64,000 nt of DNA from Rhodanobacter glycinis (GTDB lineage Bacteria > Pseudomonadota > Gammaproteobacteria > Xanthomonadales > Rhodanobacteraceae), in assembly GCF_900114325.1 (NCBI RefSeq), contig NZ_FOSR01000013.1, forward strand, positions 1 through 64,000, written 5' to 3'. The position numbers and the translations under genes are program-made. The notes beneath the pieces are model-generated. The model was not told the DNA's origin and searched no databases. It worked only from the letters and a program-made list of their open reading frames with translations. Shown piece by piece: positions 35,498 to 40,351 of the stretch; positions within the stretch are counted from its first letter, which is position 1, and the number at the start of each line of letters is the position of its first letter.

Positions 35498-38400
35498 TCA
35501 GTTGCGCGCGACAGGGTCCGACCGACGCAACAGCGCCTGGCGCCAGCGCTGCTGTTGCGTGGCATCGCCCTCGACCAGCCATTGCGGCTTGTTCGCCACC
35601 AGCGCCGCCACCGCGACGCCGTCCTCGTACAGCACGCGCGTGCCGGGCACGGCGGGCAGCTTGTCGCCGGCGAGCACGGTACCGACCAGGTTCAACGGGT
35701 CGCTGCCGCAGACGCAGGCCAGCGTGCCGTCGTGCTCGCGCTGGCGGATGTCGCGCAGTAGCGGGATCGCCTCGGGCAGCGCGAACTGCTCGCCGACCAG
35801 GCCTTCCACGAAGCGCCCGCCGCGGATCTCGCCGCGCGCCTCCAATCGGCGGTACACACGCAGCAGTTCGCGCCACGTCGGCAGCCACGGCGCCTCGCGT
35901 TCCAGCAGCTTCCAGAACATCACGCCGTAGCGAGCGAGCAGCGTGCGCGCGACGTGTTCCACGCTTTCATCTCCCTCTCCCCTTTGGGGAGACGACTGCA
36001 TGGATGCAGGAGGTAGAGCAATGCATGGAGCGATTGCCGAGGGTTGGGGTGAGGGGACAACCTCGCCTCGATCCGCATTGAAGCCCGCTTTTGGAGAAGC
36101 TTCCGCGAGCACCCGCCCCTCATCCGCCCTGTCGGGCCCCTTCTCCCCATAGGGGCGAAGGGGGCGGCGCACCAGCGCCCAACGCCCGGCATCTTCGATG
36201 CCGCCAAACTGATGCCTGCGCACCCGTCGATGGCGTGGCGCCTCGCGTTTCGCCGCCGGCAGCAACAGCGCACGCAGGCCGGCGAAACTGTCCGCGGTGA
36301 TACGGCCGGTGGCGACCAGCTCGCCCAGCGCATCTTCCAGCTCGCTACGCAGCAGGCGCGTGGCTTGCAGCAATTCGTCGAAGAACAGGGCGCCGTGATC
36401 GCGCAGCGCGTCGGCGACGGCTTGCGCGCGCGAGGAAAGCAGGCTTTCCTGCGGCGCGTCGCTTGCGGAAATGGACGTCCAGATGGCCATGCTCCGCCGC
36501 GACAGCAACACGATCGGGGTGGCACGCACCGGCCCGCTGCCGCCACTGCCCGCGCGCAGGCGGGTCCAGCCGATCCGGCCGGCGCGACACAGGTTGTCCA
36601 GCCAGCTGCTGGCGTAGTCGGCGATGCGCGCGGGCAGCAACTCGGACTCCCAGGCGCCGGCGGCCGCTTCATAGCCTTCCAGTTGCGCCAGCACGGCATC
36701 GAGTGCGTCCGGTCCGCGCAGGCGCGTGGCCGGCGTGAGGTGCTGCCAGTCGAGCAGGAAACGCATGAAGTCGCGCCGGTTCACCGGCTCGATCTCGCGG
36801 CGCAAGCGGCCCAGCGTGTAACGGTGGATGCGCGCCAGCAAATGGCGCTCGCACCACTCGATGTCGATCGCGGCGGGCGTGAAACGGCCCTGTATCACGT
36901 AGCCTTCCGACTGCAGGTGCAGCAGGGCGGTTTCGATATCGTTCGGGGTGACCTGCAGTGACTGCGCCAGCGTCGCCACGGTGACCGGCCCGAGCCCGAC
37001 CAGCCGGCCGCGCACCAGCTCGCGCAAGGCCTCGTCGCGGGTCCACGCCTGGGCGGCGTACTCGGCCGGCGCGGCAATCGCCGGTTGCAGTGTGGCGTCG
37101 GCATGAACGGCTTGCCATAGCGGCAGCTTTTCCGCGCAGACCCACATGTCATTTTCCCTTCTCCCCTGAGGGGAGCACGCGGAGAGGGGCCAGGGATGGC
37201 CCCGGCTTTGGGGAGCGAGGAAGGTGCCCGGCAGGGCGGATGAGGGGTGGGTGCTCGCGTAAACGCCGCTAGTTGCGTGCTCCGATAAAGACTGCGGCAA
37301 GAGTGTCCCCTCACCCCAGCCCTCTCCCCGAAGGGGAGAGGGAGAAAGGCGAGTTGCGCGGTGGTCGTGGGCCAGTGCGTGCAGCTTGTCGTTCCAGCCG
37401 TCGTTCGCCGCAGCCTCGTCGGCGGTGACGAAACCGAGCACGTTCAACGCCTCGTGCATCTCGTCGGTGCTGCGCACTTCGGGCCAGGCCTCGGCACGCA
37501 CCGCGTCGATGGCGTCGGGGTCGAGCCGGCCGAGGTCGTCGGCGTTCTCGATATCGCTGCCGCGTGTGCGCACGATGCGGGTGCGACGTTCTTCCAGCGG
37601 CGCATCGTCGAGGAAGGCGTAAGGCGCGGCGTTGAGCACCTCGGCGGCGAACGGGCTGGGCGCGGCAAGGTCGCGCGCGACCACCGTGATCGAACCGTCT
37701 TCCAGGCCATGCAGCAAGTGCAACAGGCCGTCCATGTCCATCGCTTCGCGCAGGCAATCGTGCAGGGTCTGCGCCACCAGCGGGTGGTCGGGGATCTGCC
37801 GCTCGCCGACGATGTTTTCCAGGCAGGCGACCTGGTCGGGAAAGACCGCGGCGAGCAGGTCCTCGCTCTTCATGCGCTGCAGCTGCGGCGGCACCTTTTT
37901 GCCGCCGGTGAAACGCGGCAGCGCCAGGGCGGTGACGGCATTCCAGCGCCAGCGCGCGGGAAACAGCGGTGCATCGAGAAGCGCCTGCACCAGCACGTGC
38001 TCGGCGCTGTTCGAGTGCAGGTAGCGCGCCACTTCCTCCAGCGGAAAGCTGTGGCTGGTGGACAGCGACAGCACGATGGCGTCTTCGGTGGCGGCGGCCT
38101 GCAGTTCGAAGTTGAACTGGCGGCAGAAGCGCTTGCGCAACGCCAACCCCCACGCGCGATTGATGCGGCTGCCCCATGGCGTGTGGATGACCAACTGGGT
38201 GCCGCCGGATTCGTCGAAGAAGCGTTCGAACACCAGCGTCGACTGGGTGGGCAACAGGCCGAGCGCGGCTTTCGCGCGGGCGAGGTAATCGATCAGCTGT
38301 TGTGCGGCAGATTCGCCTAGGCCGAGCTCGTCGCGCAGCCATGCAGAAGCGCACCCTGTGCGCGAATGCCCTGATATGGATTCCGGCGAAAGGCTATCGC

Positions 38401-40351
38401 GCACAGGGTGCGCTCCTACCGGTTCGGCATCCAGCCGTGCACCGATTTCCTCGCGCAGGCGCGACACGCCGAACGACAACTCGTCGCTGCGACCGGGTGC
38501 CTCGCCCAGCCAGAACGGGATGCTTGGCGGCAATCCGTGCGCGTCTTCCACGCGCAGGCGGCCCGGTTCCACGCGCTGGATGCGGTAGCTGGTGTTGCCG
38601 AGCTGGAAGATGTCGCCGGCCAGGCTTTCGACGGCGAAATCCTCGTGCACGGTGCCGACCACGGTAGCCTGCGGTTCCAGCACCACGAGGTAGTCGGCAG
38701 TATCGGGAATCGCGCCGCCGGAGGTGATGGCGGTGAGTCGCGCGCCGCGCCGCGCACGCAAGCGGTGATGCACGGCATCACGGTGCAGGTAGGCGGCGCG
38801 CGGGCCGCGGCGGGTGGTGAAGCCGTCGGCCAGCATGCGTACCACTGCGTCGAAATCCGCGCGCGACAATGCGCGATACGGATGCGCCTGGCGCACCAGG
38901 TCGAACAGTGCATCCTCGCCCCACTCGCGGCAGGCCACTTCGGCGACGATCTGCTGCGCCAGCACGTCCAGCGGCTGCGGCGGCTGCACCAGCGTGTCCA
39001 GCTCGCCGCGACGCACGCAGTCGAGCAGGGCCGCGCATTCGACCAGATCATCGCGGGTGGTGGGAAACAATCGCGCCTTCGGCGTGCCGGTGACGGCGTG
39101 GCCGGAGCGCCCAGCGCGCTGCAGGAACGCGGCGATGGAACGTGGCGAGGCAAGCTGGCAGACCAGGTCGATGTCGCCGATGTCGATGCCCAATTCCAGC
39201 GAGGCGGTGGCGACCAGCACTTTCAGCTCGCCCTGTTTCAGGCGCTGCTCGGCATCCAGCCGCTGCTCCTTGGCCAGGCTGCCGTGATGCGCGGCGACCA
39301 CGTCCTTGCCCAGTCGCTCGGACAGATGCCGCGCCGCGCGTTCGGCCAGCCGCCGCGTGTTGACGAACACCAGCGTGGTGCGATGCGCCTGCACCAGCTG
39401 CGCCAGCCGGTCGTAGACCAGTTCCCACGCATCATTCGACATCACCGCTTCCAGCGGGACGGGAGGTACTTCGATGGCGAGGTCACGCGGGCGGCTGTGG
39501 CCCGTATTTATGATGGTGACGCTGCGCTTCGCGTTCGCTTCCTCTCCCCTTTGGGGAGAGGATTGAGGTGAGGGGCGAGTGCTCGCAGGGTCCCTTCCAA
39601 AAGCACGCTCTGGTGTAGGTCTTGGCGAGAGTGACCCCTCACCCCAACCCTCTCCCCAAAGGGGAGAGGGAGCTGGCGCGCCGACCAGAAATTGCGCCAC
39701 TTCCTCGATCGGTTTCTGCGTCGCCGACAAACCCACGCGTCGCAGCCGTCTTCCACACAGCGCTTCCAGTCGCGCCAGGGTCAGTGCCAGATGCGCGCCG
39801 CGCTTGCTGCCGGCAATGGCATGGATCTCGTCGACGATCACCGTGCGCGTGCTGCCCAGCATCTCGCGGCCCGAGGCCGAGCCGAGCAGGATGTACAGCG
39901 ATTCCGGGGTGGTCACCAGAATGTGCGGCGGCGTCTTGCGCATCCACGCGCGCTCGGCCTGCGGCGTGTCGCCGGTGCGCACGGCGGTGCGGATCGCCAC
40001 GTCGGGCAGGCCGAGCTTTTCCAGCTCGGCGCGGATCCCTTCCAGCGGCGCTTCCAGGTTGACGTGGATATCGTTCGACAGCGCCTTCAGCGGCGACACG
40101 TAGACCACCCGCGTTTCGTCGGGCAATGCGCCGCCGTGTGCCAAACCTTCGCAGACCAGTTCGTCGATGGCGGCGAGGAAGGCGGTCAGCGTCTTGCCCG
40201 AGCCGGTGGGCGCGGCGACCAGCGTGTGCTGTCCCGCGCGGATTGCCGGCCACGCCTGCGCCTGCGCCGCGGTGGGCGCAGGGAACGTGTCGTCGAACCA
40301 ATGGGCGACGGCGGGATGGAATGCGTCCTGCGGGCGAGTATCCGGTCGCAT
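35498..40351 (-). CDS. lhr: Lhr-type large DEAD/DEAH helicase with four in-frame repeat insertions
   Basis: 1,617 residues. Walker [10 protein letters not shown] (46-54), Walker [10 protein letters not shown], motif [16 protein letters not shown], helicase C-domain [17 protein letters not shown] and QRAGRSGH, then winged-helix and Lhr-core barrel regions ([19 protein letters not shown] block) and a long C-terminal domain ending SDPVARN. Lhr is a DNA/RNA helicase implicated in repair. E. coli Lhr is 1,538 residues; the extra length here is explained by low-complexity inserts at residues about 227-271, 645-669, 1002-1067 and 1398-1460, each coinciding with a dispersed palindromic repeat. The frame stays open through all of them. 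The first insert follows motif III; the others lie in linkers or C-terminal parts. Frame and motifs otherwise look intact. Confidence 0.93.
35972..36160. repeat. Palindromic element inside lhr (insert D)
   Basis: CCCTCTCCCCTTTGGGGAGA at the left and CCCCTTCTCCCC at the right, with inner GAGGGTTGGGGTGAGGGG-like and CCTCATCCGCCCTGTCGGGC blocks. Encodes lhr residues about 1398-1460, a Pro/Ser/Arg-rich stretch ending [10 protein letters not shown]. Confidence 0.85.
37153..37348. repeat. Palindromic element inside lhr (insert C)
   Basis: CCCTTCTCCCCTGAGGGGAG at one end and CCCTCTCCCCGAAGGGGAGA at the other, flanking GCCCGGCAGGGCGGATGAGG. Encodes residues about 1002-1067 ([16 protein letters not shown]... 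on the protein). Same family as 39541-39672 and 10268-10411. Confidence 0.85.
38347..38417. repeat. Palindromic element inside lhr (insert B, GCGCACCCTGTGCGCGA family)
   Basis: AGCGCACCCTGTGCGCGA (38348-38365) is inverted as TCGCGCACAGGGTGCGCT (38397-38414), 18-bp complementary arms. A different repeat family from the other three inserts. Encodes residues about 645-669 ([20 protein letters not shown]). Confidence 0.9.
39541..39672. repeat. Palindromic element inside lhr (insert A)
   Basis: CCTCTCCCCTTTGGGGAGAGG at the left and CCCTCTCCCCAAAGGGGAGA at the right, both ends self-complementary. Encodes residues about 227-271 ([20 protein letters not shown] and onward), just after helicase motif III. 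Confidence 0.9.

What the first reader, a model, noticed from the sequence alone, without database searches (positions are those of the whole stretch)
35498..40351. Four dispersed palindromic repeats domesticated in frame inside the lhr helicase gene
Elements at 39541-39672, 38347-38417, 37153-37348 and 35972-36160 lie inside one long open frame, together about 200 codons. Three share a family with an intergenic copy at 10268-10411 and one belongs to a different family. All entered without breaking the frame and encode Pro/Ser/Arg/Gly-rich linkers. Mobile repeats normally avoid genes, so four insertions in one 4.9-kb gene, all frame-preserving, suggest tolerance at loop positions, and perhaps selection for elements that are open in a suitable frame.
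Basis: partly seen in the sequence, partly recalled or inferred. Interest (0 to 1): 0.78.

Follow-up and report, generated by a model that had tools for sequence, protein, structure and literature searches.

The report
Repeat hairpins read as helicase linkers
In a soil bacterium and its relatives, mobile hairpin-shaped DNA repeats have slipped again and again, without breaking the reading frame, into the same four joints of one helicase protein, which marks those joints as tolerant landing places.

Summary
The lhr gene (35498-40351, minus strand, 1617 codons) of a Rhodanobacter genome carries four dispersed palindromic elements in frame: three of a CCCTCTCCC family and one GTAG-tagged REPIN (118 exact REP copies in this genome; a RAYT-type gene lies between REPs). 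In 119 distinct Lhr orthologs, 85 of 88 insertions of 15 or more residues fall at these four sites; 71 orthologs have none. In other lineages the same sites hold unrelated repeats (CGTC palindromes, Pseudomonas REPs, another C-rich family) or the same family in another frame. All four sites lie between Pfam domains; three are predicted disordered, the REPIN site less clearly. Of 96 element loci examined in this genome, 7 are in frame inside genes: four in lhr, one each in uvrD, hrpA and murL. Copies outside genes show no length bias and near-chance frame openness, so selection for coding-ready elements is not needed. Best reading: tolerance at interdomain linkers, sorted by purifying selection, then inheritance and turnover. 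In-frame REPs in repair genes are already known (PMC3733652); the four-site, multi-family recurrence in lhr is a new variant.

The parts
35498..40351 (-). lhr, Large helicase-related protein, 1617 codons, with four in-frame repeat inserts
   Evidence: ORF; Pfam DEAD, Helicase_C, WH_Lhr, DEAD_assoc, WH3_Lhr, WH4_Lhr; orthologs
39541..39672 (.). Element E1 (site 1, aa 227-271, between DEAD and Helicase_C): CTCTCCC-family inverted pair, 132 nt
   Evidence: RNA fold -93.9 kcal/mol, z -9.7
38343..38419 (.). Element E2 (site 2, aa 645-670, between WH_Lhr and DEAD_assoc): REPIN, two inverted GTAG-type REPs, one end degenerate
   Evidence: RNA fold of 38341-38420 -57.1 kcal/mol, z -11.3
37153..37348 (.). 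Element E3 (site 3, aa 1002-1067, after DEAD_assoc, between two predicted strands): CTCTCCC-family, with a nested palindrome in one hairpin loop
   Evidence: RNA fold -97.2 kcal/mol, z -4.0
35972..36160 (.). Element E4 (site 4, aa 1398-1460, between WH3_Lhr and WH4_Lhr): CTCTCCC-family, with an expanded hairpin loop
   Evidence: RNA fold -85.1 kcal/mol, z -1.5, 15 of 200 shuffles as good
10268..10411 (.). Intergenic relative of E1/E3/E4 (similar in short stretches only)

Best explanation
High-copy palindromic repeats (a REPIN family presumably moved by the genome's RAYT, and a CCCTCTCCC/GGGAGAGGG inverted-pair family whose mover is unknown) land more or less anywhere. Most hits in genes are removed by selection. 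About one insertion in seven would keep a frame (one third by length times 2.5 of 6 open frames, by hand), and among those mainly insertions into flexible interdomain linkers are kept. Lhr has four such linkers, so it collects in-frame repeats from whichever families are active in a lineage. Once in, they are inherited, diverge under relaxed constraint, exchange end units, take nested insertions in their hairpin loops and sometimes shrink to remnants. Shown: the repeats, the sites, the recurrence, the position between domains, the relaxed dN/dS. Inferred: transposition by RAYT, flexibility and neutrality of the linkers, that full-length protein is made.
For: Site recurrence: 85 of 88 insertions of >=15 aa in 119 distinct orthologs fall at four sites (columns 588 and 591 counted as one site), the other three at one site each. 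Unrelated families at one site: site 1 CTCTCCC in two frames, a CCCCTCCCC family (G016, G032), and a CGTC palindrome in MAG LIN-94 (13 exact genome copies, the lhr pair included); site 2 this REPIN, CTCTCCC elements, and Pseudomonas REPs in P. insulae (125 exact copies) and P. indica (50); site 3 CTCTCCC, and in G032 a pair of this REP type (its copy number in G032 was not tested). All four sites lie outside the Pfam stretches. pLDDT is below 50 over aa 229-275, 1008-1065 and 1400-1455, and dips at aa 647-649 and 660-662. Filter: 7 of 96 element loci with flanks are in frame in genes. Supply: CTCTCCC unit number against number of lhr inserts, Spearman 0.77 over 34 genomes of the family. Insert dN/dS exceeds core dN/dS in all 29 pairs computed (0.25-0.96 against 0.12-0.24; 22-68 codons each). 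Length and frame of copies outside genes are unbiased.
Against: G035 has 224 exact CTCTCCC units and no lhr insert; G031 has 23 and only a remnant-like stretch. The correlation is not corrected for kinship and counts the lhr copies themselves. Low pLDDT is not special to the inserts: the N-terminal model is also below 50 at aa 513-516, 546-552, 608-617, 807-819, 821-842, 846-851 and 910-943, and site 2 is predicted partly helical. Fitch parsimony needs 12, 5, 8 and 5 changes of the palindromic state, gains and losses together, and same-site inserts in Rhodanobacter partly share descent. Three of the four genes hit in this genome encode helicases, which plain tolerance does not predict. At site 1 the left arm differs less (9%) than the middle (28%) and the right arm (24%), which could mean constraint or homogenisation.
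Confidence: 0.8

Rival explanations
1. One old set of insertions in a common ancestor, inherited and lost, gives the pattern; there is little recurrence.
For: Within Rhodanobacter some same-site inserts are each other's nearest neighbours (G000/G007 84%, though an own-genome copy follows at 81%; G002/G004 82%). By eye, uvrD, hrpA and murL inserts of other genera sit at the same site, several in the same frame.
Against: Different families at one site (REPIN, CGTC, CCCCTCCCC, CTCTCCC) and different reading frames of one family at one site cannot be one event; the Pseudomonas and Rhodanobacter REPs at site 2 are different sequences in different bacteria.
Confidence: 0.12
2. The segments are ordinary linker low complexity, not repeats.
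For: In Paraburkholderia and others sites 2 and 4 carry expansions without a recognised repeat.
Against: Dispersed copies in the same genome, palindromy with RNA fold z of -9.7 and -11.3 for E1 and E2, foreign codon usage (log-odds -0.15 to -0.51 against +0.25 for the gene).
Confidence: 0.02
3. The hairpins in helicase messages are kept because they regulate: translation or RNase III cleavage of lhr, hrpA and uvrD mRNA depends on unwinding of these stems.
For: Stems of up to -94 kcal/mol inside coding sequence; six of the seven in-frame elements found in this genome lie in helicase genes; less divergent left arm at site 1.
Against: 71 of 119 orthologs have no insert; E4 folds little better than shuffles (z -1.5); murL and a lipoyl-domain-like gene are hit too; dN/dS is relaxed.
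Confidence: 0.04
4. Assembly or annotation artefact.
For: Repeats can mislead assemblers; two relatives have unknown bases inside a site-1 insert (G001, G016).
Against: The frame is open over the inserts in many separate assemblies, and codon signal continues on both sides in this genome.
Confidence: 0.02

Closest known systems
Intragenic GTAG- and CGTC-tagged REPs (PMC3733652; abstract and passages seen)
   Same: REPs and REP dimers inside genes, many in replication and repair genes, RNA helicases included; flexible linkers suggested; different REPs at about the same site of recB in two Xanthomonas species.
   Different: The term lhr does not occur in its main text. Here: four sites of one gene, several unrelated families per site, and recurrence from Rhodanobacter relatives to Pseudomonas. 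The paper's supplementary list of target genes could not be read.
RPE elements of Rickettsia (as described in PMC3733652; the original paper was not held)
   Same: Palindromic repeats inserted in frame into genes.
   Different: Different sequence families, host and gene set; here one gene takes most of the in-frame hits.
REPIN/RAYT systems
   Same: E2 is an inverted pair of GTAG REPs; a RAYT-type gene lies between REPs in the genome.
   Different: E2 is coding.
RIME-type mosaic repeats of Rhizobium (recalled, not tested)
   Same: Similar C-rich hairpin units, from memory.
   Different: Relationship not tested; a paper search for CCCTCTCCC gave 430 papers, and the 20 listed were unrelated by title.

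Membership tests
GTAG REP / REPIN | GTAG-tagged palindromic unit in high copy | tested here: met
   118 exact copies, reversed control 0
GTAG REP / REPIN | Two units in inverted orientation forming one hairpin | tested here: met
   The 80-nt stretch folds as one long stem, -57.1 kcal/mol; 40 loci similar to the query stretch after merging
GTAG REP / REPIN | RAYT gene flanked by the same REPs | tested here: met
   Y1_Tnp match C8:105465-105785 between REPs at 105318, 105371 and 105906
GTAG REP / REPIN | Mobilised by the RAYT | not testable with these tools
   No experiment
CTCTCCC-family inverted pairs (E1, E3, E4) | Dispersed copies in the same genome | tested here: met
   57 merged loci from two queries, a lower bound
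RIME | Sequence identity to the Rhizobium elements | not tested
   Recalled lead only
Rickettsia RPE | CGTC tag (stated for R. conorii RPE sequences in PMC3733652) | tested here: not met
   No CGTCATTC or GGAATGACG inside lhr; the only exact window copies are at 22868 and 22947. RPE sequences themselves were not compared.
Lhr helicase | Domain order DEAD, Helicase_C, WH_Lhr, DEAD_assoc, C-terminal WH domains | tested here: met
   Pfam hits over cut-off; an insert-free ortholog matches solved chain 7lhl_A, ATP-dependent DNA helicase, E 6e-195

The most novel reading that the evidence does not exclude
Helicase genes are not just tolerant but favoured acceptors: in-frame hairpins in lhr, hrpA and uvrD make the yield of each helicase depend on unwinding of its own message, a feedback rebuilt repeatedly from whichever palindromic repeat is at hand.
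Probability: 0.05. Interest if true: 0.88.

Novelty: new variant of a known kind. Interest (0 to 1): 0.52.

Why it matters
It gives a natural insertion map of a large helicase: repeats coding for up to some 90 residues have been tried, and four linkers accept them in Rhodanobacter relatives, Pseudomonas and others. It also makes the older puzzle of why in-frame REPs gather in helicase and repair genes testable in one gene with filled and empty alleles in related species, and it warns annotators that linkers such as [11 protein letters not shown] are repeat-derived.

Tried and rejected
Selection for coding-ready elements: rejected, as copies outside genes show no length or frame bias. Ancestral low complexity: rejected. 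A single ancestral insertion per site: rejected in strong form, kept in part. Element tree to separate inheritance from re-insertion: poorly resolved, copies intermixed. Arm conservation as proof of DNA-level constraint: not usable, because family members resemble each other in the arms anyway. Paper searches for the CTCTCCC motif and for Rhodanobacter with palindromic repeat listed nothing on point; REPIN, RAYT, coding sequence and in frame together gave 0 papers; Lhr, helicase, insertion, palindromic and Pseudomonas together gave 3 papers, judged off-topic from the listing.

Rows dropped and limits. Of 61 genomes with some match, 43 were aligned (G029 is cut by its contig end); the other 18 had weak or partial best matches and were not inspected. 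The labels are rule-based and miss some repeats (the REPIN of G000 is scored nonrep, G019 partly so). In one search, 1 of 57 CTCTCCC loci had no flanks held; of 27 further REP places (some overlapping the 40 REPIN loci) 13 had flanks, none in frame, and 14 had none; 3 loci with coding on both flanks but no spanning frame were only glanced at. The in-gene test is a home-made codon score; the hrpA element passes it narrowly upstream (0.11). In one search the lhr regions of G027 and G021 were left out on purpose, and only positions printed could be sampled. In one search the anchors failed in 13 of 25 hrpA and 12 of 25 uvrD loci, and hit a wrong place in 2 of the 12 anchored hrpA loci (G037, G048).
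Full report
WHAT IS THERE. The window lies in a Rhodanobacter genome: G000 is of genus g1 with G004, whose contig of 404792 bases matches Rhodanobacter sp. 7MK24 in length and lhr position. The lhr gene (35498-40351, minus strand) is one open frame of 1617 codons with the Pfam domains of the Large helicase-related protein. Insert-free relatives have frames of about 1430-1460 codons, stop to stop. The excess sits in four dispersed palindromic elements: E1 39541-39672, E2 38343-38419, E3 37153-37348, E4 35972-36160.

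FAMILIES. E2 is a REPIN. Its GTAG-tagged unit has 118 exact copies in the genome (reversed control 0), many of the listed ones as inverted pairs. A RAYT-type gene (Y1_Tnp, C8:105465-105785) lies between three of these REPs. E1, E3 and E4 belong to a family of two inverted units, CCCTCTCCC...GGGAGAGGG followed by GGGGTGAGGGG, or a second unit type with CCCTCATCCG and TTCTCCC. Two queries gave 57 merged loci in this genome, a lower bound since each search scored 40 candidates only. E3 carries a nested palindrome of about 45 nt in a hairpin loop when set against G006; E4 has an expanded loop.

ORTHOLOGS. I aligned 123 Lhr proteins: 43 from whole genomes and 80 named loci. After removing four duplicates, 119 proteins hold 88 insertions of 15 or more residues against a 1426-column core, in 48 of the 119. 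Of these 88, 85 lie at four sites, the four of the window (columns 588 and 591 taken as one site); three lie elsewhere, one each. With a threshold of 25 residues it is 61 of 62. G008 and G009 of the same genus pass no threshold, but keep short stretches at sites 1 and 3 that look like remnants.

DIFFERENT REPEATS, SAME SITES. Site 1 holds CTCTCCC elements in at least two reading frames, a CCCCTCCCC family (G016, 61 exact unit copies in its genome, control 1; G032, 11), and in MAG LIN-94 a CGTC-tagged palindrome (13 exact unit copies, the lhr pair included). Site 2 holds the window's REPIN, CTCTCCC elements in other Rhodanobacter genomes, and Pseudomonas-type REPs in P. insulae (125 exact unit copies) and P. 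indica (50). Site 3 holds CTCTCCC elements and, in G032, a pair of the window's REP type (copy number there not tested). Site 4 holds CTCTCCC elements in several frames. In Paraburkholderia and relatives, sites 2 and 4 are expanded by sequence without a recognised repeat. Fitch parsimony on a core tree asks for 12, 5, 8 and 5 changes of the palindromic state at the four sites, gains and losses together. Within Rhodanobacter some same-site inserts look inherited, but the element tree is poorly resolved.

STRUCTURE. None of the four sites lies in a Pfam stretch: aa 227-271 between DEAD and Helicase_C, 645-670 between WH_Lhr and DEAD_assoc, 1002-1067 after DEAD_assoc, 1398-1460 between WH3_Lhr and WH4_Lhr. 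AlphaFold2 models of the two overlapping parts (mean pLDDT 73.8 and 76.5) put inserts 1, 3 and 4 below pLDDT 50 (aa 229-275, 1008-1065, 1400-1455). Insert 2 dips below 50 only at aa 647-649 and 660-662 and is partly helical. Insert 3 sits between two strands. Low confidence is not confined to inserts: aa 807-851 and 910-943, among others, are also mostly below 50. So the position between domains is firmer than the disorder.

GENOME-WIDE FILTER. Of 96 element loci with flanks in this genome (56 CTCTCCC, 40 REPIN), 7 are in frame inside a gene by a codon-usage test: four in lhr, and one each in uvrD, hrpA and murL. Of 13 further REP places with flanks, none is. By hand, lhr is 0.13% of the genome, so four of seven by chance would have a probability near 1e-10; this is after the fact and treats the four as separate events. 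In samples from three other genomes of the family (51, 20 and 25 elements, lhr left out of two of the samples) 4 of 96 are in frame: uvrD- and hrpA-like genes at the same sites, a lipoyl-domain-like protein, and a murL-like gene; these four names rest on sequence likeness, not on a family search. In one search, among the 10 genomes with a usable hrpA anchor (this one included) 8 have CTCTCCC motifs at the site and one (G007) another C-rich repeat; among 13 with a uvrD anchor (this one included) 6 have CTCTCCC motifs, by eye in more than one frame, and 7 do not.

SUPPLY AND CONSTRAINT. The number of exact CTCTCCC units in a genome correlates with the number of such inserts in lhr (Spearman 0.77, 34 genomes of the family, not corrected for kinship); G035 (224 units, none in lhr) and G031 (23, none counted) do not fit. 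dN/dS of same-site inserts is higher than that of the Lhr core in all 29 pairs computed (0.25-0.96 against 0.12-0.24; short stretches, and some pairs may not share descent), and insert codon usage is foreign. The 22 full-length CTCTCCC copies that are not in a gene frame all have an open frame, on average 2.5 of 6 (base-shuffled 2.3), with lengths spread evenly modulo 3; 29 REPINs outside lhr have 3.7 open frames on average. So roughly one insertion in seven would keep a frame without any selection on the element (by hand).

MECHANISM. The simplest account is tolerance: abundant elements land anywhere, selection removes nearly all that hit genes, and the linkers of Lhr, and single linkers of UvrD, HrpA and MurL, keep the frame-preserving ones. 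What tolerance does not explain is why three of the four acceptor genes here are helicases. The literature saw a similar leaning to repair and helicase genes (PMC3733652; passages seen). The messages contain very stable stems (E1 -93.9 kcal/mol, z -9.7; E2 -57.1, z -11.3; E3 -97.2, z -4.0; E4 -85.1, z -1.5), so a regulatory role is possible but has no direct support.

KNOWN OR NEW. REPs inside genes, linkers as likely hosts, and a shared site in recB of two Xanthomonas species are in print. The term lhr does not occur in that paper's main text; its supplementary gene list could not be read. The multi-family, four-site recurrence in lhr, and its parallel in Pseudomonas, did not show in the searches made (of other papers only the search listings with the starts of abstracts were seen).

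Noticed in passing
22866-22957: A CGTC-tagged palindrome dimer, a third repeat family of the window; its genic context was not examined.
   Followed up: no
58888-58973 and 30590-30621: A further REP-like family with CCCGC...GCGGG stems; the copies are 84-93% alike in short stretches.
   Followed up: no
L242:3-2366, L272:1289-5491, L259:1944-3428: uvrD, hrpA and murL of the same genome carry in-frame CTCTCCC elements; several relatives carry repeats at the same uvrD and hrpA sites.
   Followed up: partly
35972-36160, and L061, L034, L074 (lhr of G001, G014, G021), L387 (uvrD of G001): Hairpin loops of the elements hold nested expansions, read for example as TRGGAMDGAGFEER, which also keep the frame.
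   Followed up: no
L398 (uvrD of G014): The uvrD site holds another repetitive-looking sequence (GLGTRDSGLG-type peptide) without CTCTCCC motifs; copy number not tested.
   Followed up: no
3-1911: Direct repeats with a spacing of about 270 nt.
   Followed up: no
49745-50044 and 51309-51608: Two 300-nt stretches 84% alike, 1564 nt apart, possibly a gene duplication.
   Followed up: no
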